From Saccoglossus kowalevskii (lineage: Eukaryota > Hemichordata > Enteropneusta > Harrimaniidae), in the NCBI RefSeq assembly GCF_000003605.2, contig NW_003110477.1:80959-111932 (forward strand): a stretch of 30,974 nucleotides of DNA. Direction: 5' to 3'. Positions 133-30,419 of this stretch are shown in pieces (the stretch's first letter is position 1; each line of letters opens with the position of its first letter). Under the pieces are notes generated by a model. The model had not been told where the DNA came from and made no database searches. It saw nothing but the letters and a program-made list of their open reading frames with translations. A program made the position numbers and the translations under genes.

Positions 133-375
133 TGACATCTTTTGTAGAGAACCATGGTGATATTGCCTCTGCAAGAATAACAGCAAAAGTACATTATTTA
201 AATATTAAAATGAAAGCCATGTGTTTGAAAAAAGCGTCGAGTAGGACTATTACAGCCCCGTCATTATTTATATTCGGTAAATATTTTATTGTAAACAAAC
301 CCTGTTAGGTCGAGGCAGTGTTGATCCTGTTGCTAATACAATAAGGGCAGTTGAGATATATACAGCAAGTAACAT
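133..375 (-). CDS. Defensin-VWD family copy C, 5' coding exons 1-2 (partial; runs off the left edge)
   Basis: Exon 1 (301-375) opens with ATG directly after an acceptor-like TATTTTAG and encodes 25 residues. They start MLLAVYIS, have a hydrophobic core and end in GSTLPRP, so this is a signal peptide almost identical to that of copy B. The donor is AGG/GTTTGT. Exon 2 ends at 133 with donor GTAAGT. Relative to copies A and B, exon 2 lacks one base at its 5' end, so the usual acceptor (start at 168) would shift the frame. An AG two bases further on starts the exon at 166 and restores the phase, removing one codon. With that start, the exon reads AISPWFSTKDV and leaves one base, as in the other copies. 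The rest of the gene lies beyond base 1. The family role (secreted defensin-VWD protein) is inferred from copy B. Confidence 0.6.
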
Positions 376-1141: not shown

Positions 1142-2596
1142 TCGATGACTTGTCAATCACTGGTGACTATGTAAATGATACACTGTAAAACGATGAATAC
1201 GATAACTTGTAAAGGGTTTAAACCTGTTCTGTCAAAACAATGTTTGCAACGTGCTTGTAATGAAAAAATATAGCTTTTGTTGGTACACAGATGCTAAACA
1301 GACGTTCTGATACATTGTACTGTCAATTGAAACTAAGGTCACGAAAGGGTTTGTTAGATTATTGACCATGATCGCAACTACATGAACTGAGAGCAAATCA
1401 CAAATTTTAGTTCATACTGCCCGGAGTGTACTGCTCTTAAAAACAAATGAAGAATGAAGGACTACTTGTTAATGCAATTGATAGCCTGAAACTAAGATAT
1501 AAAATAAGTGTTGGCATAATATGCCTAGTATAAAGCATAATATAAAATAAGTAATTGCAGGTAAGAGTATTTTGTTTAAACCAATGTGTATGGAGAGACT
1601 GAGAATAGAAAACTGTATGCAAAGAGATTGGTTGGGGCAAATAAATCCGAATCATCAGAAATAAAACTCCACGAATTTATCAATCTATAATATAAGTGGA
1701 GGGACTATAACTAATGTTGTCACAGTGTCATATTACAAGTTACATTACAAATATTTAAATAGTGTAGCCGGTATCAGGGATGATATAAGTAGGATGTGTG
1801 TGATTTCGAGTATATTGTGTACATTTATTCATAACACCAATGCTGGAGAATTCCATGTGCTCGTGAAATAAAAATGTCAAACTACCTAACAAACTTGTTT
1901 ATAAGCACATTGGTAATTTACTGAGCGAGGCAAGCTTCAAACAGCCTAACATCTACGGATAATATGAAATGTGATTACGTCACGTTTTGTTTATATACTG
2001 GCGGTTAAACAATAAAGTTCCCACGGTATCTTCGTTGGTCTTAGTACATCACCATAATTTTTGATTTTGATAGATTAGATGTCATCCTCATTAAAATATT
2101 AGTTGTCAAACTACAGTATGCTTGCTCGATCTACCCTGTAGGCAGTGGCCGTTCACTATTTTGGGGTAGAGTGACTTGTCACTTTAATAAACTTCCTAAA
2201 GCAAGTTTGACACTTGCACTAGTCTGTGGCACGCATTGGCACTAGCCGTAAACTGGCGTGAAGTGTACATAAACCCGTCGCGACTGCGTGCCATATTGGG
2301 ACGAGAATTTTGAAATTTTAAAAATTGTGGTAACCACAACACCAATCAACACCACAAGAGGCGAATGGGCCAGCACAATATGCTTTAATCGAATTGATTG
2401 AATACATAAAATACTCAAAAAAACGTATCGAGAAATGCAGTGAGTTCTGTTCTGACTTAAAAGTGTTGACATGGTCGCTAAGGCGTCTGCGCATGTCCAC
2501 GGACATCGACAACAAAACAACGGTTCATGTAACAAAGCTAATTTATAAATTCGTAACGCATCTTAAAACGACCGGGCGGCGTTCTACCTTAAACTA
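1142..2596. other. Unassigned intergenic DNA upstream of copy C
   Basis: The first 120 bases or so still resemble the flank of copy B around 16540-16650. After that I see no domain, splice-linked coding exon, RNA gene or clear repeat. Open frames near 2242-2597 overlap on both strands without recognisable protein. They may include the 5' region of the LINE that follows, but no ORF1-type motif is visible. Confidence 0.4.
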
Positions 2597-3443
2597 ATGG
2601 CTTACGTAACCTTTGTTTTGCTATCTATACTGATGGCGAATCTGACTGTAACTTCTTTCAACATACGTTGTGGAATGGATGCACTTAAACGGTATGAACT
2701 TTTTATATATTTAAATATTGATTCGTCTGATGTTTTTTTACAAGAAACGCATACAACTCCTAATGATGAACCATAGTGGCGAATTATTTGGCGAGGTTTC
2801 GCTAAAGTTTCACATCTTGACTCGAATTTTGGAGGAGTTGCGATTTTATTCAATAAGCGTAGTAATGTTGATATTCTACAAACAAATGATATTGTGCCAG
2901 GCAGAGTGCTACACGTTCGAGCAAAATTCGGTGACTACATTTATAACCTCATCAATGTATATGCGGCAGTTAACCCAATGGAACACAGAGAAAACTTCAC
3001 ACAAATTAAGGTATTTCTCAGTAGAATCCATGATGACAATCCTGTAATCTTAGGCGGCTACTTTAACTGCACTACCAATTCCGCCCACGATAGACTTAAC
3101 GCAACTGAACTCGATCGCGCTAGTGCTGAACTTTTATTATCCATTATGAAACGACATAAACTCATAGATGCGTGGCGTCTTTTTCGATGGGGACAGGGTC
3201 AATTATACTTGGTCAAGAAACAACAGTGCAGGACGACTAGATCGTGTCTACATCCCTAAAAATCTGGCCACTCGGGTCCAACTTGTAAAAATCGGCACAG
3301 GTGTTAACTCCGACCACTCACCAGTGACGTTGAAACTGTCGCGTGCGTCAATAAATACTCGCAGTCCCATCTGGTGCCTGAATACTCAACAATTGGAAGA
3401 CGAACAATATCGGGAGTTAATAGCAGTTATATGGAAACAATGA
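2597..3443 (+). pseudogene. LINE endonuclease domain remnant
   Basis: The frame starting at 2597 reads TSFNIRCGMDALKR, then DVFLQETHTT (the catalytic glutamate motif), then GGVAILFNK, NVYAAVNP and ILGGYFNCT. The last should be GDFN, so the catalytic aspartate is replaced by tyrosine. A TAG stop interrupts near 2774. A frameshift near 3178 moves the remainder into the frame that reads YTWSRNNSAGRLDRVYI and ends with the conserved NSDHSPVTL. This is the exonuclease-endonuclease-phosphatase fold that nicks target DNA in LINE retrotransposition. It is inactive here. Confidence 0.85.
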
Positions 3444-3489
3444 CAACAAGAGCAATGTAAATACGATTCGTTACAGACTTGGTGGGACA

Positions 3490-4874
3490 TTGGTGAAGAT
3501 GAAAATCATTTTTTTTTCACAACAATACAGTAATTTCAGAAACTCAACACTTAAAGGAACTAAACATATTCTAGAAAACGAACTGTGTAATCTCGAGAAC
3601 AGCCGATCCACTGAAGCAAATGTAGAAACTCGCATCAAGGAAAAAAAGGAACTGTTAGAGAAACTGATTAAAACACGGGAGCAGGGCGCCATCGTGAGAT
3701 CGAGATTAAAACAACTCAATGGAAGCGATGTAGCAACGTCCTTTTTTTTCGAACTCGAACGTCATAAAGGGAGGAAAAAACTGAGTGTTAACTGGTCAAC
3801 TTACGGAAAACCCAACTGAAATTAGAAAAAAATAGTTAAAGATTTCTATTCACACCTGTATACGCCAGACTCAGTTTCTATAGAAGCGCAAACTAAACTT
3901 TTAGATGACTTACCTCAACTTAGTAATTTGAGTAGAGACAACATTGATATGGAAATACAATTTCATGAACTCACCATAGCTGTTAATAAATTGAATAGTA
4001 ATGCGTCGCCTGGTATTGATGGGCTACCGGGTGAGTTCTACAACACTTTCTGACCGTTAATCGGACGTGATTATTTTAAAGTATTTTTCTGCCTCTATTA
4101 ATGCAGGCAATTTACCACTATCTTGTCGCCGAGCTGTCTTGTCACTATTGCCTAAGAAGAGTAGTACAAACTTGATAAAAAACTGGAGACCAGTCTCATT
4201 TTTATGCAGTGACTACAAAATTCTTACTAAAGCTTTGTCTATGCGGCTGCGTGGTGTTCTTGGGAAAGTAATTCACAAAGATCTAAGTTATTCAATACCA
4301 GGTCGGAATATTTCTGATAACATTAATTTAATACGCGACGCAATTAGTTATGCCAATCAACAAAATATTCCACTCGCGATTCTTTCACTTGATCAGGAGA
4401 AAGCGTTCGGTCGCGTGCATCATAGTTCTTTACTGAATACGTTCGGATTTGGCGACTATTTTATTAAGTGCGTTAATGGCATTGTATACAAACACGCGAA
4501 GTTTAGTGAAAGTTAACGACGCCCTCACTTCGCCTCTTGAGTTCTATCGTGGTATACATTAGGGCTGTTCCCTGTCCGGACAACTTTACTCACTGTGTAT
4601 CGAACCGTTACTCAATACAATTCGTGATAAGAATGGAACACGTTGTCTTGAACTGCCAGGTCCTAGACAAATGAAATCACATTTATCCGTCTATGCAGAT
4701 GATGTTGATGTTTTTATTACGTGTGATAAGGATTTTGAAAGTTTGCTGCACTGGCTGAATACTTATGAACACGCTTTAAATGCTAGAATAAATATGCAGA
4801 AATCGGAAGGTCTCTGGACTGGTAGTTGGAAGTGGCGCAATGATCGACCGTTTGACATGCATTGGAATAAATAA
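3490..4874 (+). pseudogene. LINE linker and reverse transcriptase domain remnant
   Basis: A lysine/glutamate-rich, probably helical linker (3490-3819) precedes the RT. From about 3895 the RT motifs run SNASPGIDGLPGEFY, NWRPVSFLCSDYKIL, SIPGRNISDNINLIRD, then motif A SLDQEKAFGRV (normally FDRV), motif B RGIH-stop-GCSLSG (the usual Gln codon is TAG), and motif C YADDVDVFI, still intact. Stops occur near 4051, 4514 and 4560, and several frames are used. The enzyme would copy LINE RNA into DNA, but it is broken here. Confidence 0.88.
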
Positions 4875-6190
4875 GGGCTAAAGTTTGCGGTACGTATATC
4901 GGAAATTCTGCTGATTTTAACTATAATAACTGGAAAGATACTGTTAACGCCATTGTCTCTAAACTTGACCACTGGCATCAGTTTGCTCGAGCTTTATCGT
5001 ATCGTGGGCGGGTTCCGATTATTAATCAACTATGTGCGTCAAAACTATGGCATCGACTTATTAGTATGTCGCCCTCTATCGACGTACTTGACATGCTGCA
5101 GATTAAATTTAATGATTTCTTGTGGCAATGACGGCATTGGGTCCCACGAGACGTCATATACCAACCTGTTAAAGACGGGAAACAGGGTCTCGTGCACCTA
5201 GTATCGCGTGTTACTGCCTTTGGGCTACAGTTTCTCCAGCGTTACCTGTACTCTGAACTTGAACATCCAAGTTTTTGTTTTGCAGGCTTTAATCTCAAAC
5301 AAATCGGGAATTTGAATTACACTAAACAATTTTTTGCCATTAATTTCCTTGATATTCCTGTTAATACCTACTTGCCAGTCTTTTACCGTGACTTGTTTAA
5401 TGCATGTAAGTCTGTGTATTTCAACCGCCATTCAAAACCTACAGATATTCATGAGTACTTCACCGAGCCATGTTTAATAACCCGTTCGTTTCACACCCTG
5501 TTACTGAGCTCCCCTCTGACTTGGACTGCTTCTCGGAAGCAGGGTTAACTACAATTGTGGATTTGATTGATCAAACTCACCGCCGTTGAAAATTGAAATT
5601 GCGCCCTCAGTGGCTATTTACTCCCGTCGGGTTTTGACATAAAAGTTAAATCTGATTCATAAAGGTATTTTACAAAGTTTTGAAGCTATGGCTCATTTGG
5701 AGTATTTCCGTGAGAAACCGAACCAGCAAAACCGCTTAAAGCAGTTAAACGTCATTTCACTTTACTCTGTAAAACAGAGGTAGAGAATGACGAATCAACT
5801 TGTCTTTACAAATTTGAGAAAGGCGCTATATATCAGTTTTGATTAAGACAATAGCTTTGAATAATGCGAGGTTGGACACAGTATGGAGAGATTATTCAGA
5901 TATACCCGCTGACATCAAACCAAATTTTAATTGTATTTACGATCCTCCCATTTACAAAAAAGAAGATGACATTCAATGGCGCCTACTTAAAGGGGCGATT
6001 TCTACAGGTCAGTTCATTCATGCAGCAGGGTACACCAGTAATGACAGTAATGAATGTCCTTTCTGTCGATAAATTCCAGACGATCTTACGCACTTCTTTC
6101 TTGAATGTCCGCGTCTTGACTCGGTTTTAAAGATTGTGATTGATCTTTCTAAACGCTTGACTGAGAGTGATAGTATTCCTGTATAGTGGT
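4875..6190 (+). pseudogene. LINE ORF2 C-terminal region with zinc-knuckle remnant
   Basis: Successive short frames read LDHWHQFARALSYRGRVPII, then QIKFNDFLW with a stop, then a segment from 5192 to 5548 rich in aromatic residues. From 5839 the frame ends with ECPFCR, a stop, then DDLTHFFLECPRLDS. This C-x2-C...H...C pattern is that of the zinc-binding C-terminus of L1/Tx1-like reverse transcriptases. Stops and frameshifts break it throughout. From 6190 to 6590 there are AT-rich remnants and the presumed 3' UTR. Confidence 0.75.
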
Positions 6191-7306: not shown

Positions 7307-7312
7307 TTTATT
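7307..7312 (-). terminator. Candidate polyadenylation signal AATAAA for copy B
   Basis: The minus strand reads AATAAA 137 bases after the predicted TAA stop of copy B (7449-7451). That gives a short 3' UTR of ordinary length. There is no competing downstream exon. Confidence 0.55.
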
Positions 7313-7448: not shown

Positions 7449-7455
7449 TTAGCAG
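7449..7455 (-). CDS. Copy B exon 7: last codons and stop
   Basis: After the acceptor CCTATTTGCAG, the first C completes AGC (Ser), followed by TGC (Cys) and TAA. The protein thus ends PGSC, supplying the final cysteine that VWD domains usually have at this place. Copy A ends the same way (PGSC, then TGA) after an intron of nearly equal size (113 versus 118 bases), which strongly supports this tiny coding tail. Confidence 0.65.
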
Positions 7456-10400
7456 CTGCAAATAGGATAATCCAGAAAAATATTTTATTAATTTGAGTAA
7501 TTTTACAATTTTGAATCATTCCTGAACAGTATGTTCAGAAGTCTAAACTAAAAAATCAGGTTTACATAATTACCTGCCAGGAACGAGCCAGCTTTCTCCA
7601 AATTTGTTTACGTCATTAGTTAATTTCAGTGTTCCATCTGACACTCTCATTAGCATATCATTATCTGGATTGCCATCGGCGTTGCCCATTAATCCACAAA
7701 CTTTACCAAACATAGGTGCTTCAAGGGTTGGTGCCACGCGTCCTTTGCCATTCCACATTAAAGAGAATTTGGAGTCCATGGTAATTTTCACATATTCTGT
7801 ATACTTGTGAACTTTTAAATGGCCATTTCTCCAGGGAAATGGTTCGGTTATATTTCGGTTGTTCAACTGTCAATAACAAAAATCGCTATGTAATACAGGC
7901 ATGATAGTAAACTAAATATAGAAGGGAAAACCACTGTATAGTTAAACACAGGAAGACGCGTGCTGTTTTTCGTATAACAGCCACACTTATGACTATTATT
8001 CTATATTGATCTTGTCAATTACACTGTTCTATGCATGTAACAGCTGATATTCGCCCATTTGTCATTAAAACTTGCCAAATATACCCCAAAGCAGGTACTG
8101 ACTTGTAATACTGTATTGATGGTTTGAATACAGCTTTGTTAATTTTTTAAATATTTAAGGTAAACTTCTATTCACTTTTAAAGGACAATTAACAAAGCTT
8201 TAGGTTTCGAAGTGACAGACAATGAATAGAATAATGGTTATGGTTGCTACCGATGTGTAAATGAAAACAAAGAACTTCGTTGATTGGCAGAAATAAACAC
8301 AGCAGCTAAGTCAATAGGGGTATTATTACAAACAGTGTTATTAGTCTAGATAACACAAAAGACCCGAGGTGTGTTGTGAAGGCATAGGCCGAAACAAGAC
8401 TGCAGTATACCGTGGTGTTGCCAACTTACTAACATAAATCCTCATCAACAATTATTTGAATGTATTCTATTAAATGTGCATGTTACAATGAACAAACTTG
8501 TAAAACTACAAAAAATAACGCCCGGTTGTTGTCGGAATCTGATTTATAAGTAAAAGTAAATATGACAGAAAACTGTTGAATGAAATATAATCAGGGGATG
8601 ACAGATTGCCTGTTTATAAAATCTTTTGAAATTAGTTGAAAGGTGAAAGTTAGTTTGTTGAATTACATATCAAACCTTGTAATACAATGTACAGCATAGG
8701 GATTAATAACTAGAAAATAATATTTATGTAAATTTAACCAGCTGCTCGTTATTAAAACACATTCCAGTCATTTATTATTACAATGCCATACATGGTCTGT
8801 TTAGATTGTTTCAAATTTAGAAGAATATGAGAAGAATAATCAATACCCATAATTTCTAGCTTGTGTGAATGTAATATGTATTGATGTATGAATTTCATTA
8901 GAATTTAGGCATAGTACTCGGTTCGACATGGGGTTGCCACGAGGCGGCATGATCGGAAGACTAATTTGGTGCATATATATTTTGTATAATGTACAATTCA
9001 AAAGAAAAACAATGTAGAAAAAATATCGATGACAAAACAATCCAAAGAATTAACTTTAATTAGCAGAATTACGTATTGAAATTAGTTATTTAGTAATTGC
9101 AGTGGCAAATTATGTCCAACACAGCAGTTACATCATGTGCCGTATAATAATTCAAATGGGGGACATACATGGTGCAAATGAATTATATGATAGTATGTTT
9201 CAACCTACGCAATATCGTCAACTTATCCTTAGGAGAGAGATGAGCTTTAACTCATTGCAAGTTTAGATATAAATTACTATCATTGTCTATGAGTTTATTT
9301 TATAAGTTGACGGTATATGAAACACAGATACTTCTAGCCAGTGATAACGTTGATAAAATATACATATACATAGCAGCCAATGAGAAAATATTATTTCATG
9401 ACCAAGGCCTGTTATCTTTGGTTTGACAATATACAATTAACTTTACAATTCATTTTACTTACATACACATCCCTACCAAGGTTTGTTGTGACGGAATTTC
9501 CATCTGCATATACTGTCACTTCAGAAACACCAGTTTTGTTGGCGATTTCAACATAGCGATGTCTAACAGCAACGACAAATGTAGGCACATGAATGCACTC
9601 TTGAAATAACACATAAGAACAGCCATCATGTCCATCGAACTTGAATTTTTTTCCATCGAGTGTCTGGAATTGAGGATCGCCTAATTCTGCACTCCGGGAG
9701 TCTAAGGACAAATAACAAAATTAGTAGTTACGCATGCACCTTTATTACAAGCCCATAGTGTGTGTGTGGTCAGCTGGCAGCCTGATTTAAATGCTTACAC
9801 AAAAATATTATTGGCCAAAGGAAAACTAAATTCTTGGATATAAGAGAGTGTATTATTAAACATGTATGGTACAAGTACAAACTTTAAAACTTACCTTGTT
9901 TTATAGTATTTCGATATCCTGTAGATAGTATAAACAATTTCACAAATATGTTTAATATTTGGTTCACACATGCATTTTTCAGACTAAACAACTAAGATGT
10001 TTACAGGTTGTAGTGCGAGAAGGAATTCACTAAGTTAAAATAATGTTACGAACCATGTATCAATAAATACAACGTGGTCTATTGCTACTCTATATCAATG
10101 TCACGTCAGTCAATAAGGCAGTTACAATAGAATTACTATATTAATCGCATAGCATGAAATAATTACGCGTCAAAATACATATATAAACAATGTCTGGCAA
10201 TCCCTGAATTGCTAAAACAAAATATTGAACACTTTCACATAATAAAGGCTGATCATTGCGAATATTCACATTGTAAATGTTTGATATCATAATGCATTAA
10301 AGTGTTAAAAAAATAACCAGTTTGAAGATGTCTGTTTAGACAAACAGGGCATCTATATCACTAGAATATTCTATTTTGCTTTCATGCATCTAATATATAA

Positions 10401-12428
10401 TATCACAAACCTTTGCAGCATACATAATTGCCCGTACATAAGCCAAGCTTTCCTTGGCGTTCTATTTCGGTATTGCAAAATGGTCGGCATACTCCACCCA
10501 ATAAGGCACATGCTTTGTCTGTATAGGAACGAATACTTAATTATATTTATTTATTTATGCAACTGCTTATTTCATATTTCCTTGTCTGCATAATGTACTT
10601 ATCATATTCAGTCGTTGTAAAAATAAATAAATAATAAATAAATAATCACATCTTATGCAGCTATTTTTTTTTTAAATAGTTATTGCCACTTGTTCACATC
10701 GCGTTAATCATCACGTCTGCTTGTATTCGTTCTTGTACCTGTTTTTTCCAGTCATAGATAACATTATGTTGTTGTTTATATGTATGTATCACCTTACATA
10801 TAAACTGTCGATACCGAAAAATTGAACCTTTTGATGCATCGACATTTGTGGCAATTATGAATAATACATTTGTTTTGATTTGGGAAACGATTCAGACCAG
10901 CAATTATCTAACAAAAAAGGTGTAATAATCACGCCGTACAGCTGTACTATTTATCTACAATTTTAACAAAAGAACCCAATATAATTTTTATCATTTTAGT
11001 GAATTATTGGTGATGGAAATCATAGAAATTCAGTGTGTGTTTTTCTGATAAGTAATGGCAAAATTTTTTTATGCTGAAATATATATACAAAACTTGATTT
11101 TGACAACTTAGTTATAAATATATTCGTTTAACTCGTTTCAAAAGAACTTTTTTTATTGATATATGACACGTCAACTCACCTCCCGCATCTCTATTATCTT
11201 GTATCTCTACAGGGATGAAAACAAATTTTTACTAGTTTATTTATATTTATCTTACACAATGTAGTAGAAAACGAAACAGTATATTCGCAATGATTGATCC
11301 CGTGTATGTTGTTTACAATCCTATGGTGCAAACTGTTTGCCTGCAAATAGTGTAAATGTTTAATGTAAACATATGTAGTGATCAAACTTTGAGTTTATTT
11401 CAAACAAGATGCATTTTGAGCCCCAGTCTTCCGGAGTAAATTAGTGTTTACGTCGTATTGTTATAATGGCTGCAAAATATAACCCGATTAGAAAACAGTG
11501 CAATTATATTCTTGAGGCAAGCAATTCTGTATTCTAAATAATGTTAGAGCAGTTAATATTTGTAAGAATTTCTTAGACCACAGTTATTGCGTTATGTAGA
11601 TATATAAAAAAATAGTCAGTTACAGAAATATATTTACAGAATTGTTACCGCATTCAGAATATTGTTTGATTATACTATTTAATATGTTTGGAAAATTTCG
11701 TCACCGATTGTACGAGCATCATACATTTTCAGCATTAATATATCAATCCACATTGTGATTGTTTGCTTTGAATAAAAATGACATAATATAACTGGTATAA
11801 ACACCGGTATCTTCAAACAAATGTACATGTAGCAAATGTATGAATGTATATATTTTTACTCGAATGAAAATGAAAGTAATTAACTCTTAATTAATATTAA
11901 TATATAAGTTAACTTTTCATTTTACATATTCCATACTGTATGCTTACGCGTTGAAGAATATTTCAAACATGTAAAATCTATTGAAGCCATGTCGACCCAT
12001 TAAATATTATCGAAACATACAAACAGCATGGCAAGCATTGGAAATTGCATTAACAACATATTTACACAAATATGTAGCGAATGACAGCCACCACAAGTAA
12101 ATCCTGACATCCTGAGTAAATTGCTTTTCAAATGAGTACTTATATTACGTACATACTACACACATAAAAATGTCAAAAAAGCATTAACTTACTGACATCG
12201 TTTGGAGAGCTCCAGAGTGATCTTTCCTCCTGCAAGAATAACAACAGTTTTCAATATTGAATTGGAAGCCATGTGTGTGGAAAATGCGTCGAGTACGACT
12301 GCTTTGACGACTACATGTAGACATTTTACTGGTATGTGTATACACACCTGCTTGGGCCGAGGCAGTGTTGATCCTGTTGCTGATACAACAAGGGCAGCTG
12401 ATATTGAAATATACACAGCTAGTAACAT
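7449..12428 (-). CDS. Copy B: secreted big-defensin-like/VWD fusion protein, 7 coding exons, 263 aa
   Basis: Seven exons (12348-12428, 12193-12229, 11180-11206, 10411-10518, 9463-9701, 7574-7866, 7449-7455) join with GT-AG sites and consistent phases into 792 coding bases with no stop. Residues 1-20 or so are a signal peptide. Residues 22-49 are a short linker. C52, C59, C63, C76, C82 and C83 form C-x6-C-x3-C-x12-C-x5-CC with GGVCRPFC, very close to the big-defensin C-terminal domain. Residues 86-263 are one VWD domain: GDPQF at 92-96, CGLMGN at 221-226, and a final Cys at 263. NIT at 169 is a possible glycosylation site. Inference: a secreted protein carrying an antimicrobial-type module on an adhesion-type module. 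Signal peptide, VWD and splice phases are seen directly; defensin homology rests on spacing and the CRP motif. No close match to this fusion is known to me. Confidence 0.78.
7574..7866 (-). CDS. Copy B exon 6: C-terminal half of the VWD domain
   Basis: The acceptor is TTATTGACAG and the donor AG/GTAATT. The 97 codons include FPWRNGHLKV, MDSKFSLMWNG, FGKVCGLMGNADGNPDND and NKFGESWLVPG, all in VWD order. The family CGLCG motif is CGLMG here, so the second cysteine of the pair is missing. The exon is 293 bases, exactly as in copy A. Confidence 0.88.
9463..9701 (-). CDS. Copy B exon 5: N-terminal half of the VWD domain
   Basis: The acceptor is TTTGTCCTTAG and the donor TAT/GTAAGT. It encodes 79 codons after the phase 1 split. 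It has ELGDPQFQTLDGKKFKFDG (usual family motif GDPHF-x-TFDG; here His is Gln) and GCSYVLFQEC with two VWD cysteines, then beta-strand-rich sequence with TVYADGNSV. The first VWD cysteine normally found just before GDPH is absent. The phase 0 end joins exon 6. Confidence 0.85.
10411..10518 (-). CDS. Copy B exon 4: big-defensin-like six-cysteine domain
   Basis: The acceptor is CCTATACAG and the donor AAAG/GTTTGT. The 108 bases encode 35 whole codons flanked by phase 1 splits. They include CALLGGVCRPFC and end in YVCCK. The cysteine spacing is 6, 3, 12, 5, 0. From family knowledge, big defensins show about 6, 3, 13-14, 4, 0 with a similar CRxxC, and vertebrate beta-defensins 6, 4, 9, 6, 0. Expected disulfides are 1-5, 2-4 and 3-6. 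Net charge is about +3. The hydrophobic N-terminal domain of true big defensins is not seen. Confidence 0.72.
11180..11206 (-). CDS. Copy B exon 3: 27-nt microexon, phase 1-1
   Basis: It lies between TCATCCCTGTAG and GTGAGT. The split codon AAG is followed by IQDNRDAG and one spare base. Copy A has an exon of exactly 27 bases with IQDSRDLG. The other two frames contain stops in at least one copy, so the frame is well supported. Confidence 0.68.
12193..12229 (-). CDS. Copy B exon 2: 37-nt linker exon
   Basis: The acceptor TTATTCTTGCAG and donor GTAAGT flank 37 bases that read EERSLWSSPNDV plus one base. Copy A has the same length and phase (EAKSPWISQKDV), and copy C has AISPWFSTKDV. The shared S-x-W-x-S-x-x-DV pattern supports the frame. 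Confidence 0.7.
12348..12428 (-). CDS. Copy B exon 1: signal peptide
   Basis: The exon encodes 27 residues beginning MLLAVYISISAALVV and ending TLPRPKQ. It is a hydrophobic core followed by a small-residue cleavage zone near SATGS. The donor CAG/GTGTGT is in phase 0. The ATG follows an acceptor-like TATTATAG, so a 5' untranslated exon probably precedes it. The open frame runs on through the 118-base intron, but that read-through is not conserved in copy C, where the intron has a stop soon after the donor. Confidence 0.72.
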
Positions 12429-14190: not shown

Positions 14191-14350
14191 CATGCATGGA
14201 ACAGCTGACTATTTATTCCCATGAAAAGTGTCTACATCACTATGGGATCAACGCCAGCTGTAAGCGAGCTTGAAACGATTAGTTATGCTGTTGAGATCAT
14301 GTGGCCATTCTGTCACCAAGGTCTGAGTTTGTTTACTAGAAAGTATGAAA
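14191..14350 (+). repeat. Direct repeat pair 2 (partner 16771-17020)
   Basis: Shared blocks in the same order are AACAGCTGACT, AAAAGTGTCTA, GAAACGATTAGTTATGCTGTT, GTCACCAAGGTCTGA and AGTATGAAA. The partner has about 90 extra bases in two internal insertions, including the GC-rich stretch 16845-16980. Together they suggest a dispersed non-coding repeat family. Confidence 0.65.
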
Positions 14351-14730
14351 AAAGCAAGTCTTTGTTGGCTGAACACTAAGTTAGTGGTATATTACCCATT
14401 CACGAAGACATGTTCTCAACTTAAATGTGGTTCACATACAGATACAACAGATTTCTGATTACTATGTCTTGTGCTTTTATTGCATGGCGGAAACATCACG
14501 TGATCGTTATGATTTCTTATGTAACGACCTCGCATGCCCACATTATGGACGTCTTTTAAGGTGAAGTCTAGTGAGAAGGGGCTAGACAGTTTTTGCGGCT
14601 AGACAGTATAGAAGGGCGCGATTTGTGATGTACATAAAAGCATGATCAAAACGTTTTGGTAAAGTGGCTTGCACGATGTGCAATGAAGACAGTCCATGCG
14701 CACATTTCCAATACAAATAAGGTCGTTGAG

Positions 14731-16019: not shown

Positions 16020-16083
<64 letters not shown>
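16020..16083. repeat. (AT)n microsatellite
   Basis: It is an uninterrupted run of alternating A and T for about 64 bases inside the copy B 5' intron. It creates an artificial open frame of Tyr-Ile repeats on the minus strand. Confidence 0.97.
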
Positions 16084-16770: not shown

Positions 16771-17020
16771 TATGCGTGTAACAGCTGACTAAAACGGTTT
16801 ATTTCCATTAAAAGTGTCTAGCCAAGAACCATTGTTCCTCTTGGCCCAGTTAAAATTGCGCCACCCTGGAACGAACGCCGGCTGTCTGCGAGTTTGAAAC
16901 GATTAGTTATGCTGTTCAGAAAATTTTCCGATTCTGGACGCGGCCGGGTGCATTTGTCAAATCGAGCAATTAATAGGGTTGTCACCAAGGTCTGATTTGG
17001 TTTTCTCGAGAGTATGAAAG
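16771..17020 (+). repeat. Direct repeat pair 2 (partner 14191-14350)
   Basis: This is the longer partner of the repeat described at 14191. It lies upstream of the presumed first exon of copy B. Confidence 0.65.
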
Positions 17021-19060
17021 AATGCTTTGCTGGGATGAATACATTAAGTCGTGGTTTGGCATCTTATTCACAGAGACATCGAAAGATCGAAATTACATTA
17101 TTTCTGAATTAATATTGTGTAATGCAAATAAAAAAAAATAATACATACTGCTCAGAATACATAACACTCAAGAACACATAAACGATTTTGCACTACTATT
17201 GAATTATTGATACAATTGATTTTCAAAGTGGAGTAGCTAAAATTAGTATCTGCATAGTGTACCCAGAAACGGGCGTACTATGAAATAAGGATTTACATGT
17301 TTGCAAATAAGAATTCGCTCGTTTTTAAGACCATTCGCCGAAAAACAACGCAATTCGAACTTCATTCCAACCCCGTATGCGTACACCCGTTTCTAAGTAG
17401 ACGTGTATTCAGGGAAGCGCCACGGATATACATGATACCATCCGTCATAGCTAAACATAGTCTGTGTCATTTATACATACTGTAACTGATGGTGTCAAAA
17501 ACGGTATGAAAATGTAGAAAGTAGCCTAGTCTCATACAAACATTCATCGCATAGAAACTTCATTCTTTACTCGTTTTACTTTTTAAGTAATTGTATTTAC
17601 AGAAATGAATGATTAAATGCACAGATGCTTCAGTTTTCAGCGGTATATGAAAAGGCTGATACAGATTAAATGTAAAAAGCCAAATCAGTCGCCGACTAGG
17701 AGTAGAGCTCATATTTCCTATAAACCCATATCGTAAAAACAGCATTAAGAAGCATCAAACAAAAATAATGTACTATCACTGAGAATAAATTGTTTGCTGA
17801 TGTGGTGATTTAACAACACAACAAAATACAACAACAATTGCATAAGTTTGTGTCCAGCGTTTTCATAGAAAACTGTGATCGTGAGGAAGCTTATGTAATC
17901 AGTTGGACCTTCATGAAAGCTGAACTGAAACATACGATGGTGTTTGCTAAATATATTGCAAATAACTTAATTATCGGTGATAATATTTGCAGATCTGTAT
18001 TCAAATTATTTGTTTTATTAAGCTTCTAACAACGGCGATTTAGTAAAAAGGAAAGTCACTAACTGACTAATTGGAGATATAGGCAATACATTAAATGATA
18101 TACATACGTAACAATTTCATCAGACTCGTCTTAATATTTTAAAAAAAATATACAGGATTAACTCGTCGAATTGATTTTATCCACAACATGTGTCACTGTA
18201 TTTGTAAATCTGTGTTTAGATTATATTATATTTCAGAATTCACATGGTAACAAATGTGAGTTACTATTAAAATTTTCTATGCTAAGACAGTCATTCACCT
18301 AGAAACTTTTCGTTCGATAGTTTTGACGAAACAGACAATGTCTGTTTAAAATGTCAATATATGTAACTACAGGCCATGGCATACAGAAATAGATGGCAAA
18401 TAAGTACCATATTGATAGGAGAGGGCAAGCATCAGGTATTGTTGAGAAGGAAAATTGTTGAGAGTAGAATTGCCGTCATGTCGCGAAATAGGCTGCTAGA
18501 AGTGTGCTCCTAAATTTAAGTCAAGGCACAGAGTCAAGTATGAAGCCAAAGAACTACATGATATCTATGGCACAAATACATATGGGGCTGGTGGTGCAGT
18601 GTGCTCAGTACTCCCCATGCAGTAGTTTAATTTTCGCTCTTCAAATCTAACACGCAACGTACTGGATTATTACGTTCACCTATCTAACAGGAGCACACAA
18701 TATCACATTAATAATGAGATATGTACATATAAAATCAGTAATACACAGCTGTGCTAACATAATGCTAGACTGGCATAGTCTGGGCGATTTATTCCTTTTG
18801 AAATTTAAAATTAAATAAAAAAAAATGGAGGTGTTAACGCGAAATCCCCTGTAACCGCGAAATCACCCAGACTGAACGTTTTTGCCGCGCCCTCTGTGGT
18901 GAAAGCAGGAACTAGTGTGTTTTCGTACTAGTTTGTATGTCAATGAGCAGAATGACAGACAAGAACGTTATCCAATCAGAGTAATTTGACTATTAAACTA
19001 CATATAATTAACCTTTGTACCTGAAGACTTTTCTTCAAGTTTCTCGATTATCAATCATAA
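17021..19060. other. Unassigned intergenic DNA
   Basis: I see no protein domain, RNA gene or clear repeat in 17021-18830. From 18830 to 19060 the base composition becomes less AT-rich, with CCGCGAAATC motifs, leading into the RecQ-like reading frame. Short open frames at 17297 and 17838 have no recognisable content. Confidence 0.4.
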
Positions 19061-19088
19061 CAAACGAATTACTATTTTTAACGTTATA

Positions 19089-19355
19089 ATGGCGAGAAGT
19101 AGTCTGCGTGTAGCTGTATCTCGTCTGGGTTACAGTGAAGCGCGATCTGCACAGAAGACAATAATTGATGGTTTTACTTACGGCCACGACGTTTTCGTTA
19201 CCCTTCCGACCGGGAGCGGCAAATCGATTGCATTTGAAGTTGCTCCGTTCTGTTTAGATGAAAAACAGTTTGTAACAGTCGACAAGTTGACCCACAATGT
19301 TTACCTCATTATGCAGCGCGCACGCCCCCGCTCCATTACTGTATCTGTTCAGTGA
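19089..19355 (+). pseudogene. RecQ-like DNA helicase N-terminal fragment
   Basis: The 88-residue frame from ATG 19089 reads VSRLGYSEARSAQKTIIDGF, then HDVFVTLPTGSGKSIAFEV. The SAQKT segment corresponds to the RecQ glutamine motif, and LPTGSGKS is an intact Walker A (motif I). After APFCLDEKQ the similarity fades and the frame stops at 19355. Motifs Ia, II (DEAH) and the rest of the helicase are absent downstream. It could be a first exon whose partners lie elsewhere, but no continuation was found nearby, so a fragment is more likely. RecQ helicases unwind DNA by ATP hydrolysis. Confidence 0.65.
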
Positions 19356-25006: not shown

Positions 25007-25299
25007 CTTCCAGGAATGATCCAGCTATTCCCGAATTTATTTACGTCACTGGTTGTCTTCATCGTTCCATCTGGCATTCTCATTTGCATATCATTATCTG
25101 GATTTTCATCAGCATTGCCCAATAATCCATATACTTTGCCAAATATGGATGCATCAAGAGTTGGCACCGCGCGTCCTCTGCCATTCCACAATAATGTAAA
25201 TTTGGAGTCAAGGCTGATTTTCACATGTTCATCATATTTGTCAACCTTTATTCTGCCATTTGTCCAAGGGAAGGGCGAGTCTATTTCATTGCCGTTCAC
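25007..25299 (-). pseudogene. Copy A exon 6: VWD C-terminal half
   Basis: Its 97 open codons start VNGNEIDSPFPWTNGRIKV and include LLWNGRGR, FGKVYGLLGNADENPDND and NKFGNSWIIPG. The length is identical to copy B. The conserved Cys before GL is Tyr. It lies downstream of the exon 5 stop, yet the frame is intact. Confidence 0.8.
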
Positions 25300-26503
25300 C
25301 TATGTACCAAAAACACAAATAGAATAAGTAAAGCAACCAATATGGACACACAACAGAGCTTGTTTTACCATGCCATAATTTATATTCAAAATTTAATATC
25401 AATTCATATTTTCCCTGATACTTACGCTGGATCCATTGGCCACCTCTTCAGTGCGATATGTTGATTTAAATTTGCCTTTAAGTTTTACTTGCATTGACAT
25501 TCTGTCTCGGACTTAGATTTGAACTCCCCATTGCATTGAAATTTTGAATATAATTTGCATTGATAGTTTGAGTTAGTTACTTTGTTGAGTGTTTGACTTG
25601 AATAAATTATGTATTGGATTAGAGAAACGAACAACAATTTGATGAACATTATTAGCTTTTTTTGTGTAATTGGATGGATTGATTTCTTGGGCCTTACAAT
25701 ATATTTATGACATTGTGTTTCACGTAATAGTTTTTTTTTACATTTTCTAAATACAAAAAATAATTAATGCAAGATAAAATCTTTGCGAACTGTACGAGAG
25801 ACGTGGATGATAAACATATTATTTTTATGCATATCAATTACTAAAGCCTACTGACTAGAAGTCGTTACATAAAAGCGTACAGTGACTTTCCGACAGAACT
25901 CCTGTCTGTTGTTAAATAAGATCCATTTAATATGTCATTGTACCCAGGGTTTGTCATGCCTGCTAAAAAATGTTCTACATCCGTATTTGTTCCAGATTTG
26001 TAGACATTTTAGTTTACATGACTGTTTAAGTCTTCAGTGCGGTGGCTATATTTCTGACAAGACACACGTCGGTTGTTCTACAATACCGTTCCTGCATGGA
26101 GATTGGCACATTCCATCACATGCAAAAGTGATGGTACTTCAATAGAAACATTTTTAGGCTGACGGTGTGTGGAACTATTTTGTGACAAAAACAGCGCAGG
26201 AGCCCTAATTATCCAATAAAAATATATTCATTTATATATCATATTGTTCACTAATTGCCATTTGTTTTCTACAATTTATTTTTGTATTGATTGTATATTA
26301 ATATATTCTTTAGATTTGTTATGAAATGAGACTATTTCATACTGATCCTTTGATTTCCATATTTTTTGGCAATAAAAGCTGTCATTCATTGATATTGTTA
26401 CATGGTAATACGCGATATAAATAATAATGTTTGGGAGGTTTTAACCTGTGTAACGTTAATAATGATGATTCCTACTACATGCAGTACAATGTATTTCACT
26501 CAC
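25300..26503 (-). other. Intron between VWD exons of copy A
   Basis: No coding domain or known repeat was recognised. Open frames here are short and without motifs. Confidence 0.45.
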
Positions 26504-26742
26504 ATAGACATTTCTACCAATTGTCGTTGTAACCGCATTTCCATCTGCATATACTATTACATCATAAACACCGGTTTTGTTTACGGCTTCAACATAGCGA
26601 TGTCTAACAGCAACAACAAATGTAGGCACATGAATGCACTCTTGAAATAATACATAAGAACAACCTGCATGTCCGTCAAACTAAAATTTCACTCCATCAA
26701 AGCTGTGGTACAGAGGATCGCGAAAAACACCACCAAACAACC
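26504..26742 (-). pseudogene. Copy A exon 5: VWD N-terminal half with in-frame TAG
   Basis: It is 239 bases, equal to copy B. It reads FRDPLYHSFDGVKF, stop, FDGHAGCSYVLFQECIHVP, then VRHRYVEAVNKTGVYDV. About two thirds of its residues match copy B, with a long block identical apart from isolated changes. GDP is RDP here. The open sequence after the stop argues that the stop is recent or a sequence error. Confidence 0.75.
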
Positions 26743-27034
26743 CTAAAGAAAGAAACGGCCATAATATTAATGTAGTGATTTTTATATGCACAATCTGTAT
26801 GTTATACTTATATGGAGCGTGAATGCAAATTTTGTGTTTATTATCCTTCATGATTTCATTAGCTTGGCTTTGTAATATTTGCTTACGATGTATGTTTTGA
26901 TTATTGGCAATTTTAGATACTCCTGCTAGCAGTCTTATGGATTGGTTCCAAGAAAAGTGCAATTTTACTGTGTTTTGAATGTAACTTGGATATTGTAACG
27001 AGGAGGGTTGTACAAGTGGTGATTATTTTCAACG

Positions 27035-27253
27035 GTGCCATGTATAGGAAGATCAGGTAGACGGATAAACCAGAAGATAATGCAACTGGGTGGTGATATT
27101 ATAACAATAACTGGAGTGCAGGATAGAATGGTACACGACGCCAAAAACGTCTTGATCAAACAATTATATTCTAGTAACGTTTCGGGGATGATGAAAATAC
27201 CCCTTCCAGTTAACTTGGCTATGTTTAAACAATTTGGTACCCATATTTTTTAA
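27035..27253 (+). pseudogene. KH-domain-like fragment inside the copy A intron
   Basis: The plus-strand frame reads CIGRSGRRINQKIMQLGGD, then IITITGVQDRMVHDAKNVLI, matching the KH pattern I-G-x2-G-x2-I...G-x-x-I-x-I-x-G-x4-V-x2-A that binds single-stranded nucleic acid. It starts after an in-frame stop at 27020 and ends at 27253, with no splice-linked neighbours noted. It is antisense to copy A. A retro-copied or transposon-borne fragment is plausible. The family call is by motif only. Confidence 0.35.
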
Positions 27254-28502
27254 AGAACATACAACTCCATGGAAGCGTTGATTTCATCATGATGGCTGCA
27301 ATCCTAGCGTTTATTATTGAATTTATGGTTTGTTATGATAGTGTGTTGGATGATTAGTTTCGGAGTGTATAATATGTTTAATAAATATTTCACTTACGGC
27401 TAAAAATATTCCTATTGTGTTCTAAAAAAAAGAAAACACATTTTAATTAAATTTAATTAGCATTTTACTACATGCATCATATACGTAATATTTACCCAGT
27501 ATTGTAACGCTGATAACATTTACTATTCGTTTCGAAATGATTGCCAATCAGAGTGTGCATTACATTACAAATTATACAAAAAACATGACAACATGTTAAC
27601 TGCATTGCGTGTTGTCAGTGGCCTACCGCTGCCGATGATGAATATATCTTTAGAATGTACAGTATAAATATAACCATTTTCATTAGAAAGCACACATCCC
27701 TGCGCGCTCACCAAACAATGTATCAGCCAATCAACAATGTATCAGAGCATGGATGTAATTCTATTGCAATTGCAAATATGTACGTTGTAAAACAGTAAAA
27801 TATATCAACGGTATTAAAAATGTGACAACAACAAAAAAGAAAGAAATACCCATTGTTAACCGATACGCTTGCAAGCAAGGGGAAACAAACCGAACCATTA
27901 GGTAGTGGCAGTGAGAACTTCTTTTTAATTATAATATCAAAACATGACAAATGTAATATTTATACAGTGGTAACTTCACATGACAGACATCGACAGTGTT
28001 GTAAGTGCGTCATAATTGTGTTTATGTTATTAATAATATTTTGGTTTGTTCCAAAATGACGGCCGGTTGATTATTTGCAACGATGCATACAAACGTGAAC
28101 AAAATAAACTTTACATTCCAGAATTGTTTTCGTATACTTGTTCGTTCGTACAGTGGTGTTGTCATATTATAACATACATGTGTAACAAATCGATCAATGA
28201 GAACGTTGCAATTCATCAATTGGTGTTATGTTTCGGAGTAATGTGTATGAAACAATGACAGTACACTAAGAAGGTATTTGAAATACAACTGACGAAAAAC
28301 ATATATACTGAGGGCAATGTTAACGTCACTAAAGTTTAGTTTTTTCTTGAAGGTCAAAGTTTATTATTTGCTTTGGTATTACCTGCCCATGTATGAAATT
28401 ACTCAAGGACATGGTTGTGTCACAATTGGACATTTAAAGTCTAGATTATGTAAAATCTAAAATAATGTAAAATATTCGCATATAGTGTATACTGTTACTC
28501 AC

Positions 28503-28631
28503 TTTTGCAGCATATATCAGTACATGTACATACGCCTGTTCTACGTGGACGTTCCTGAAAAGGGTTGCAAGATGTGATTGGGAAAATAAGCAAAGGTCGG
28601 CATGTTCCACCCATTAAGCCACAGGCCAAAT
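28503..28631 (-). CDS. Copy A exon 4: defensin-like domain, lengthened, seven cysteines
   Basis: Between CTCATCTAG and GTGAGT, 42 whole codons read from LACGLMGGTCRP to CTDICCK in phase 1-1. Spacing is C-x6-C-x10-C-x12-C-x5-CC, with one extra cysteine between the fourth and fifth. The loop between cysteines 2 and 3 carries the added hydrophobic residues (RPLLIFPITSC instead of RPFC). The change is exactly 21 bases, so the frame is kept. Confidence 0.62.
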
Positions 28632-29882
28632 CTAGATGAGACAAAAATGTTATGCTTATTAATAACGAGCAGCCACTTCTGGGCACGTACATATGACATT
28701 TATTAAACACTGATATAAATAATATCAGGCTTTTGGCGTCTGACCTATCATTCTATCCATATTTGCAACTTGTTGGAAATAACAGGAAAAAAAAAAACTT
28801 TTCTAGGTGCAAGAGTCAATCCTAAATATTTAGCTTCATACAAATGCATTGAAGGAAATAATGTGATGGTATAATCATTTGGTCTGATTTTGAGTCACGG
28901 GTGAGGTGTTTTCTGGAAATATATTCAAACCAGAATCAAATACAAATTACTCTTATAAACAATGTTACAAGAAGAAGTGCTTTAGGCCCATCAAAACATA
29001 GCTTAAAGGTTAGCACTGACCACATCTTACGTTCTTCTCGTCATATAAAGTAATTATAATTTTTAATAATCAGTTGCTCACTAAAAAAATGGAAGTATTT
29101 TGTAGTTTGGTTTGAGGTTTTAATCATAATTGTTTTTTATCACTTGATCAGCATGGTGCTAAACTCAAGTCTACATATGTGCATTTGATATGTTTTTGAA
29201 GTAAAAAATAAAATAAACTTTGTAGTTTATATGTATATTTACATACTACAATTGATATAATCACACTTTGCAAGTAACCGACAAATTAAACATTCCAAGA
29301 CATAATCTAAATTGATATATAAAAGTTATTTTTAGTGAACTGTTTGATTTAAAATGTTTATATTTTTAAGATTAAAGCGGGGGTGTCATCACCTGCCCAC
29401 GTCCGGGAATTGAGTCCCAACGATAGCAACGCATGCTAAAAACGCAAAAACTAACGGGTAGACTGTTGCACCGTAAAACAATGATACGTTTTGGCCACCT
29501 GACGCATGCACAGGGGACGACTCCTATTAAATATAATAATGTGATTTCCATTATCGCAAGTGCAATTATGGGGCATTATGAATAACACATTTTTTATTAT
29601 TTTGAGAAATGAAATCCATACACAAGGATTCAGATCAGCCAGAATCTGAAAAATATGGGGGGGGGATCATCACAACGTACAGCTATACTATTAGCCCATA
29701 TGCTAATGACAGAACGATTTCACACACTTTTGATATAAGTAGCATTTAAAAATAGTCAGAAATGGACAGACTGCAAAATCCATGATCACTTATTACACTT
29801 TTTTTTCCAATATATAATCATGAACATTTTATATTGAAACAAACAAACTATTTTTGTGTGAATAAATGGCACATCAACTCAC

Positions 29883-29909
29883 CACCTAAATCTCTACTAT
29901 CTTGGATCT
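29883..29909 (-). CDS. Copy A exon 3: 27-nt microexon
   Basis: It reads IQDSRDLG in the same phase as copy B (IQDNRDAG), between TTATCTTTGTAG and GTGAGT. The flanking intron is also recognisably homologous to copy B (for example CGTACAGCTATACTATT near 29677 and its counterpart near 10934). Confidence 0.62.
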
Positions 29910-30382
29910 CTACAAAGATAAACAGAAATTGTTATAGTTTATTCACTTTATTGTTTTTGTATTAGACTTGTATTCAAAAGCAATACAAACGAAACAGTTC
30001 ATTCCCAATGATTGGGCATATCTCCATATCCTGTTTAAGTCCATGATGCAATATGCTTGCTTACAGTTATTACAAATTATTTAAATGTAAACGCATATAA
30101 CGATCAAACCTTTTAGTTTAGCTTAAGCAATTTAAAACATGCATGTTGAGTCTATCATAACAAATTAGCATATACGTTGAATTCTTCAGTTGACTTCGAA
30201 ATGAAACCAGATTGGAAAACAGTACAATGAAATCAGCAGAAGCAGTTTCAAATTGTATAAATTTAACACCACACGAGTATAAAATAGAGGAAATTACAGC
30301 AGACCCAAAACGATCTGACACACTAGATGGAATTGATTCACCACCAACATATTTTTATTTGTCGAAAAAAACATTAACTTAC

Positions 30383-30419
30383 TGACATCTTTTTGAGAGA
30401 TCCATGGTGATTTTGCCTC
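30383..30419 (-). CDS. Copy A exon 2: 37-nt linker exon
   Basis: It reads EAKSPWISQKDV plus one base, between TTATTCTTGCAG and GTAAGT. Intron sequence on both sides aligns with copy C (1-240). The homology stops near 30510, before any signal-peptide exon. Confidence 0.6.

What the first reader, a model, noticed from the sequence alone, without database searches (positions are those of the whole stretch)
7449..12428. A gene that fuses a big-defensin-like domain to a VWD domain
Seven exons with consistent phases give one 263-residue secreted protein. It has a signal peptide, six cysteines spaced 6-3-12-5-0 with GGVCRPFC, and then a complete VWD domain ending in Cys. Big defensins are known with a hydrophobic N-terminal partner; VWD is known in mucins, vitellogenins and adhesion proteins. 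I know of no described defensin-VWD fusion. If real, it may tether or assemble an antimicrobial module on mucus, shell-matrix or microbial surfaces (inference).
Basis: partly seen in the sequence, partly recalled or inferred. Interest (0 to 1): 0.9.

Follow-up and report, generated by a model that had tools for sequence, protein, structure and literature searches.

The report
Defensin-like module fused to mucus-protein domain
An acorn worm genome carries a family of genes for secreted proteins that join a beta-defensin-like disulfide module to a mucin-type VWD domain, a combination that may hold a defence module in the animal's mucus.

Summary
The gene is real as described: seven GT-AG exons on the minus strand give a 263-residue protein with a signal peptide, six cysteines spaced 6-3-12-5-0 and a complete VWD domain (E 7.9e-22). 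It is not a one-off: Cys-rich exons lie before VWD exons at 16 loci seen in this genome, including 9 of 9 relatives first fetched for their VWD alone. A profile of 12 Cys exons hits six PDB chains, all beta-defensin-fold (best E 0.015). Reversed and column-shuffled controls hit none; keeping Cys and shuffling the rest still hits hBD3 weakly. So the module is beta-defensin-like, though no single match passes a curated cut-off. It is not a big defensin: the hydrophobic N-terminal domain is missing. Mitochondrial order and code point to a Saccoglossus-like hemichordate, in Ambulacraria, where a 2020 review found no big defensins. My searches found no paper describing such a fusion. Best mechanism, inferred: the FCGBP/mucin-like VWD anchors a defensin-like head in mucus. 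Module charge is -2 to +5, so direct membrane killing is unproven. Expression, folding and function are untested. A new variant of a known kind.

The parts
12348..12428 (-). Exon 1: signal peptide (MLLAVYISISAALVVSATG, cleavage site inferred) and start of mature chain
   Evidence: hydropathy; 26 of 27 residues identical in paralogue D
12193..12229 (-). Exon 2 (37 nt, phase 0 to 1), linker EERSLWSSPNDV
   Evidence: paralogue C844 has a 37-nt exon of the same phases at the same place
11180..11206 (-). Exon 3 (27 nt, phase 1-1), linker; stands where C844 has its first Cys-rich exon
10411..10518 (-). Exon 4 (108 nt, phase 1-1): beta-defensin-like six-Cys module, gaps 6-3-12-5-0
9463..9701 (-). Exon 5: first half of VWD (GDPQ in place of GDPH), one N-glycosylation sequon
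7574..7866 (-). Exon 6: second half of VWD with CGLMGNADGNPDND, one N-glycosylation sequon
7449..7455 (-). Exon 7, coding part: AG|CTGCTAA, adds Ser-Cys-stop
   Evidence: Ser-Cys-stop also readable in paralogues C and D
7307..7312 (-). AATAAA, possible polyadenylation signal about 137 nt past the stop
   Evidence: read; not tested
25009..30419 (-). Gene C, paralogue: exon 2 about 30383-30419, exon 3 about 29884-29910, six-Cys exon 28504-28632, VWD 26504-26719 and 25009-25299; in-frame TAG in VWD1, lost Cys in VWD2, no exon 1 found in the window: probably a pseudogene
133..375 (-). Gene A, paralogue: exon 1 (301-375) and exon 2 (about 133-169); the rest lies beyond the window and could not be read

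Best explanation
The gene codes for a small secreted two-module protein: a beta-defensin-like (trans-defensin) disulfide module followed by a single VWD domain of the FCGBP/mucin type. It is one member of a multigene family in a Saccoglossus-like acorn worm; the more distant members seen carry two or more Cys modules before the VWD. Most likely mechanism (inferred): the protein is secreted onto mucous epithelium, the VWD domain associates with the mucus network, and it displays the defensin-like head there, covalently attached because the autocleavage motif GDPH is GDPQ here. The head binds or inhibits microbes or their products. Shown: gene structure, paralogy, VWD identity, a defensin-like sequence profile, dN/dS below 1. 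Inferred: disulfides 1-5, 2-4, 3-6 in the head; Cys112-Cys263 and Cys120-Cys221 in the VWD; mucus location; defence role.
For: Gene model and VWD. Closest solved structures of the VWD: FCGBP (1.2e-63 over six stretches), then VWF and mucins. Profile of 12 Cys exons against the PDB: 6 hits at E up to 10, five beta-defensins and helianthamide, whose beta-defensin fold is recalled; best E 0.015. Controls: reversed 0 hits, columns shuffled 0 (53), Cys kept and the rest shuffled 3, hBD3 at 0.2 plus two unrelated chains. Pfam: 3 of 12 members touch Defensin_beta_2 and 1 of 12 Defensin_beta (E 0.0061), all under the curated cut-off. Phase-1 intron before Cys1 as in big/beta-defensin genes. The fusion recurs: 9 of 9 relatives first fetched by VWD similarity have two Cys exons upstream. 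Exon order and phases shared with C844 (93). dN/dS of exon 4 is 0.34-0.60 among B, D and E, and 0.17-0.38 for their VWD exons.
Against: Each defensin match is weak on its own: E 0.0061 to 5, no Pfam cut-off passed, and the Pfam scan of the whole 263-residue protein lists VWD only. Gene B exon 4 alone also hits an unrelated exchanger at about the same E as defensins in the PDB. A genome search with PF00711 listed 8 weak places, none of them these loci. Of the 9 dom2 modules outside the B/D/E group, 6 have one extra Cys (CxCC) and 3 have two. Net charge of dom2 is -2 to +5 in 12 members, -2 in D, so cationic killing is not a family trait. The dom1 profile finds no PDB chain and the modules of C4555 and C446 match no defensin model.
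Confidence: 0.5

Rival explanations
1. Defensin fold, other job: the module is a beta-defensin-like fold used as an enzyme inhibitor, channel or receptor ligand, or gamete factor, presented on a VWD scaffold.
For: The best single-sequence PDB hit is helianthamide (E 0.42), recalled as a beta-defensin-fold amylase inhibitor. Neutral or acidic charge in 6 of 12 members.
Against: The family profile ranks two vertebrate beta-defensins above helianthamide. No direct evidence for any target.
Confidence: 0.25
2. Structural mucus or secretion protein: the Cys modules are disulfide spacers, comparable to the TIL/E modules of D assemblies, and polymerise or stiffen a secreted gel; the likeness to defensins is incidental to function.
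For: Distant members carry 7-8 Cys in dom2, and two have three and four CC-ending modules, which fits a structural array. VWD is a mucus-protein domain.
Against: Gene B has ten Cys in its mature chain, an even number that can pair within the chain, and a single module. dN/dS is higher in the Cys exon than in both VWD exons in 2 of 3 intact pairs (B-D, D-E); in B-E it lies between them.
Confidence: 0.2
3. Convergent Cys-rich module unrelated to trans-defensins by descent, for instance clip-like.
For: Short domain, weak E-values; other six-Cys folds also end in CC (clip domains, recalled). With only the Cys columns kept, hBD3 is still hit at E 0.2.
Against: Non-Cys residues add to the score (against 89). 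No CLIP match for 12 dom2, 2 dom1 and 7 array modules scanned. Same exon start and phase as described for big/beta-defensin genes.
Confidence: 0.25
4. Gene prediction artefact: exon 4 belongs to another transcript.
For: No RNA evidence was available.
Against: Cys exons lie before VWD exons at 16 loci seen, and in B, D and C844 the splice phases fit one open frame.
Confidence: 0.03

Closest known systems
Vertebrate beta-defensins (PF00711/PF13841; hBD3, BD106)
   Same: Order of six Cys ending in CC, GGxCR-like and E-x-x-GK-like residues in the profile alignment, phase-1 intron before the Cys exon
   Different: Cys3-Cys4 gap longer than in vertebrate beta-defensins (their gaps recalled); encoded as a cassette exon before a VWD domain, not as a free peptide; not uniformly cationic
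Big defensins (PF14862)
   Same: C-x6-C-x3-C start, CC end, 18 residues from Cys3 to Cys5 (big-defensin spacing recalled)
   Different: No hydrophobic N-terminal domain; gaps 12 and 5, not 13-14 and 4; no PF14862 match in the genome
FCGBP and gel-forming mucin / VWF D assemblies
   Same: VWD domain; best PDB match FCGBP
   Different: Single VWD, protein ends without C8, TIL or E; GDPQ in place of GDPH; CGLM where the aligned FCGBP has CGLC
Helianthamide (beta-defensin-fold inhibitor, recalled)
   Same: Best single-sequence PDB hit of exon 4
   Different: Free peptide; E 0.42 only
Panusins and non-canonical big defensins
   Same: Beta-defensin-like module without the big-defensin N-terminal domain (PMC7203481 sections 5 and 9)
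   Different: Free peptides, no VWD

Membership tests
Big defensin | Hydrophobic N-terminal domain before the Cys domain | tested here: not met
   Residues after the signal peptide up to Cys52 are polar by hydropathy; PF14862 no match in the genome (six-frame search blind to introns)
Big defensin | Six Cys, C-x6-C-x3-C-x13/14-C-x4-CC (recalled) | tested here: not met
   Gaps 6-3-12-5-0; Cys4 shifted by one, Cys3 to Cys5 distance equal
Beta-defensin-like (trans-defensin) module | Six framework Cys ending in CC | tested here: met
   B and D 6-3-12-5-0; six framework Cys columns invariant in 12 of 12 rows
Beta-defensin-like (trans-defensin) module | Profile similarity | tested here: inconclusive
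   6 PDB hits, all beta-defensin fold, but E 0.015-5; no Pfam cut-off reached
Beta-defensin-like (trans-defensin) module | Phase-1 intron at the 5' end of the Cys exon | tested here: met
   against PMC7203481 section 9
Beta-defensin-like (trans-defensin) module | Disulfides 1-5, 2-4, 3-6 and three-stranded sheet | not testable with these tools
   Structure prediction switched off
Beta-defensin-like (trans-defensin) module | Cationic, antimicrobial | tested here: inconclusive
   Charge -2 to +5 in 12 members; activity not testable
VWD domain | Pfam PF00094 above cut-off | tested here: met
   78.7 bits against cut-off 22.9
D assembly of mucins/FCGBP | VWD followed by C8, TIL, E | tested here: not met
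   Protein ends after VWD with Ser-Cys-stop; Pfam lists VWD only
Autocleaving VWD | GDPH | tested here: not met
   GDPQ in gene B; His to Asn inhibits cleavage in FCGBP (passages of PMC10880436)
Clip domain | Pfam CLIP match | tested here: not met
   No CLIP hit in 21 distinct modules scanned at E up to 10

The most novel reading that the evidence does not exclude
Ambulacraria did not lose trans-defensins: they kept them as cassette exons inside secreted VWD proteins, expanded them into one-, two- and multi-module arrays, and use them as mucus-tethered defensins. In the few members with an intact GDPH (2 of 15 VWD starts seen, C348 and C446) VWD autocleavage may release the head. This would close the deuterostome gap between big defensins and beta-defensins.
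Probability: 0.22. Interest if true: 0.85.

Novelty: new variant of a known kind. Interest (0 to 1): 0.62.

Why it matters
A 2020 review states that big defensins are apparently absent from hemichordates and echinoderms (PMC7203481 section 5). A family of beta-defensin-like modules in a hemichordate, inside proteins that annotation would probably name only for their VWD domain, would bear on whether beta-defensins and big defensins share one origin, and could explain why peptide-based screens missed them. The architecture also suggests a way of keeping a defence module in mucus by fusing it to a mucus-protein domain.

Tried and rejected
Big-defensin membership: rejected. Molluscan or brachiopod host: set aside after the mitochondrial contig. 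A dom1 relic in the window: tblastn of 9 dom1 sequences found nothing convincing (best E 0.10). The PF00711 genome search gave 8 weak places, none at these loci, so that search is too insensitive to count the family; it also weakens the value of the empty PF14862 search. The dom1 profile gave 0 PDB hits, so dom1 is tied to defensins only through its likeness to dom2 (hhalign 78%, pairwise E 1.8e-5); of two dom1 scanned in Pfam one had a chance zf-primase match, neither a defensin. The modules of C4555 and C446 (102) matched no defensin model, one had a weak conotoxin match; they are called defensin-like only by Cys pattern. For dN/dS (54) I dropped the seven inserted codons of exon 4 in C and E, the first eight codons of VWD1 in B and D, codons past 96 in VWD2 and the stop codon of C. 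A promoter/terminator scan is meaningless in an animal genome and was ignored. Rfam and NCBIfam gave nothing. A lancelet paper that names big defensins holds no 'VWD' or 'von Willebrand' (PMC12373286, search inside the text).

Full report
Observation. On the minus strand, seven exons (12428-12348, 12229-12193, 11206-11180, 10518-10411, 9701-9463, 7866-7574, 7455-7449) have GT-AG introns, phases 0,1,1,1,0,2, and one open frame of 263 residues. The N-terminus is hydrophobic and then turns polar, as a signal peptide does. Exon 4 has six cysteines with gaps 6-3-12-5-0. Pfam gives VWD at E 7.9e-22 over residues 92-238 and nothing else for the whole protein. The chain has ten cysteines, all after the signal peptide, and two N-glycosylation sequons.

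Paralogues. The window holds parts of two more copies: gene A at the left edge (exons 1 and 2; the rest could not be read) and gene C at 25009-30419, which has a stop in its first VWD exon, a lost cysteine in the second and no exon 1 that I could find, so probably a pseudogene. Elsewhere in the same genome, gene D (about C504:44288-37019) is intact with the identical cysteine spacing in exon 4, and gene E (C1255) has exons 3 to 6 open, its exons 1 and 2 not reached and its tail not examined. B and D differ at 15 of 36 residues of exon 4 but at none of the six Cys (chance 0.028 if changes fell at random). dN/dS (NG86; exon 4 only 36 codons, so noisy) is 0.55 for B-D, 0.34 for B-E and 0.60 for D-E in exon 4, and 0.17-0.38 in the VWD exons of the same pairs; the pairs with the damaged gene C give 0.38, 0.57 and 0.68 in exon 4.

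A family. A search with the VWD of gene B gave 131 matches at E up to 0.001 (150 of 212 candidates scored, so a lower bound). I fetched the upstream DNA of nine of the next-best loci, chosen by VWD alone: C1001, C844, C373, C3953, C1742, C3649, C2892, C2277, C348. Nine of nine carry two Cys-rich exons before the VWD. Two further loci, chosen because a Cys-exon search hit them (a second C373 copy, C1003), also do; the C1003 copy looks degraded. A second C348 copy has its Cys exon next to VWD exons. With B, C, D and E this makes 16 loci. The second Cys exon (dom2) is the counterpart of exon 4: in 9 of 9 loci examined it has an acceptor that splits a codon after its first base a few residues before the first Cys, and a donor of the same phase within a few residues after the last Cys. 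Only C844 was modelled in full: signal exon 66 nt, exon 2 of 37 nt as in gene B, dom1 171 nt, dom2 114 nt, VWD 263 and 296 nt, in one open frame; the DNA beyond holds an AG|TTGC that would give the same Ser-Cys tail, cut by the end of the fetched piece. Gene B has a 27-nt 1-1 exon where C844 has dom1, and no dom1 relic was found in the window. Of six more distant VWD loci that I asked for, two could be fetched: C4555 and C446 have three and four CC-ending Cys modules, which match no defensin model.

Identity of the module. Single sequences give weak matches: gene B exon 4 reaches Defensin_beta_2 at E 0.075, C844 dom2 reaches Defensin_beta at E 0.0061 over the whole model, all under Pfam's cut-offs; of 12 members 3 touch Defensin_beta_2, 1 Defensin_beta and 1 TSP_3. 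In the PDB, exon 4 alone hits helianthamide (0.42), a sodium/calcium exchanger (0.48 and 0.55) and RK-1 defensin (0.6). The profile of the 12 dom2 sequences hits 6 PDB chains at E up to 10: beta-defensin 106 (0.015), beta-defensin 3 (0.031), beta-defensin 7, helianthamide (its beta-defensin fold is recalled), bovine neutrophil beta-defensin 12 and beta-defensin 8. The reversed profile gave 0 hits, the column-shuffled profile 0, and the profile with Cys columns kept and the others shuffled gave 3, beta-defensin 3 at 0.2 and two unrelated. So both spacing and other residues point to beta-defensins. dom1 resembles dom2 (hhalign 78%, pairwise E 1.8e-5) but finds nothing in the PDB itself. Big and beta-defensin genes share a phase-1 intron at the 5' end of the Cys region (PMC7203481 section 9, read), and exon 4 has it. 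Against: no hit passes a curated cut-off, and a genome-wide PF00711 search did not list these loci. The big-defensin model finds nothing in this genome, and gene B lacks a hydrophobic N-terminal domain. I therefore call the module beta-defensin-like and not a big defensin.

Host. COX1 was found on contig C4830 (17,037 bp). Its ORFs, named by eye except COX1, have the order ATP6-COX3-ND3-ND4L-ND4-ND5-CYTB-tRNA-Pro(-)-ND6(-)-tRNA-Phe, then after a gap tRNA-Leu-ND2-tRNA-Leu-ND1-COX1(-)-COX2. ATA stands at positions where Ile is expected and AAA at a position where Lys is expected (consensus recalled); AGG is absent and AGA nearly so in the five genes counted. Passages of Perseke et al. (PMC3121625) describe this for Saccoglossus kowalevskii: inversion of COX1 and transposition of ND1 or ND2 relative to Balanoglossus, AUA Ile, AAA Lys, AGG missing. 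Passages of Bourlat et al. (PMC2697986) agree on ATA as Ile in echinoderms and hemichordates and on nd5 next to cob. The host is most likely a Saccoglossus-like acorn worm. Section 5 of PMC7203481 says big defensins are apparently absent from Ambulacraria.

Mechanism. The VWD is closest to FCGBP among solved structures (1.2e-63 summed over six stretches; VWF and MUC5B follow), a protein expressed together with mucins (passages of PMC10880436). In FCGBP a disulfide joins a Cys soon after GDPH to one just past the last strand, and changing the motif's His to Asn inhibits cleavage. Gene B has GDPQ, and its terminal Ser-Cys sits where that closing Cys is expected, so I infer that the head stays attached and that the VWD is closed by Cys112-Cys263. 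Among 15 VWD starts seen, 2 have GDPH (C348, C446) and one LDPH (C1001). Secretion to mucus and a defence role of the head are inferences. Against a simple membrane-active peptide: the net charge of dom2 is -2 to +5 in 12 members, +2 in B and -2 in D. Rivals are another use of the same fold, a structural disulfide spacer, or convergence.

Literature. 'big defensin' with 'VWD': 0 papers. 'defensin' + 'VWD domain' + 'invertebrate': 1, a trout skin transcriptome (listing only). Two of 'big defensin', 'domain architecture', 'gene family expansion': 423 papers, 20 listed. 'defensin-like' + 'von Willebrand' + 'gastropod': 2 (listing only). 'beta-defensin-like domain' or 'VWD': 2,488, 15 listed, none with the first term. 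'defensin' + 'von Willebrand factor D': 25, of which 20 listed. 'hemichordate' + 'defensin': 11 (listing only). 'Saccoglossus' + 'defensin' + 'antimicrobial peptide': 6 (listing only). 'hemichordate' + 'vWD' + 'mucin' + 'Saccoglossus': 0. No listed title or abstract start is about such a fusion. The library is open-access only, and a hemichordate genome paper that I tried by its DOI is not held, so a description elsewhere cannot be excluded. Of PMC7203481 I read the abstract and sections 5, 9 and 10; of PMC2697986, PMC3121625, PMC10880436 and PMC12373286 only passages.

Verdict. A real, well-supported gene and gene family; the module is beta-defensin-like with moderate confidence; the fusion is not in the papers that I could search; function is open. 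New variant of a known kind.

Noticed in passing
window 25009-30419 (-): Paralogue C with an in-frame TAG in VWD1, a seven-residue insert between Cys2 and Cys3 of the six-Cys exon (shared with gene E) and a lost VWD cysteine; probable pseudogene.
   Followed up: partly
window 2242-5548 (+): Broken ORFs that look like a non-LTR retrotransposon between genes A and B; of two ORFs scanned one matches RVT_1 at E 1.7e-14, the other nothing.
   Followed up: partly
window 19008-19355 (+): ORF with the start of a DEAD-box helicase (E 8.3e-6, just at Pfam's cut-off), RecQ-like by eye.
   Followed up: no
window 14238-14353 and 16862-17022: Two neighbouring direct repeat pairs about 2.6 kb apart (79% and 86% identical), perhaps copies of one mobile element.
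   Followed up: no
window 16021-16083: (AT)31 perfect dinucleotide array.
   Followed up: no
G000:C504:28244-28140: Fragment like the six-Cys exon with a stop inside: perhaps a further dead copy.
   Followed up: no
L045 and L046 (C4555, C446): Distant VWD genes with three and four CC-ending Cys modules in tandem before the VWD; C446 keeps GDPH.
   Followed up: partly
L030-L038: In the distant members dom2 has a CxCC end and a seventh (6 of 9) or eighth (3 of 9) Cys; Cys totals look odd in some genes, which may leave one for a bond between chains.
   Followed up: no
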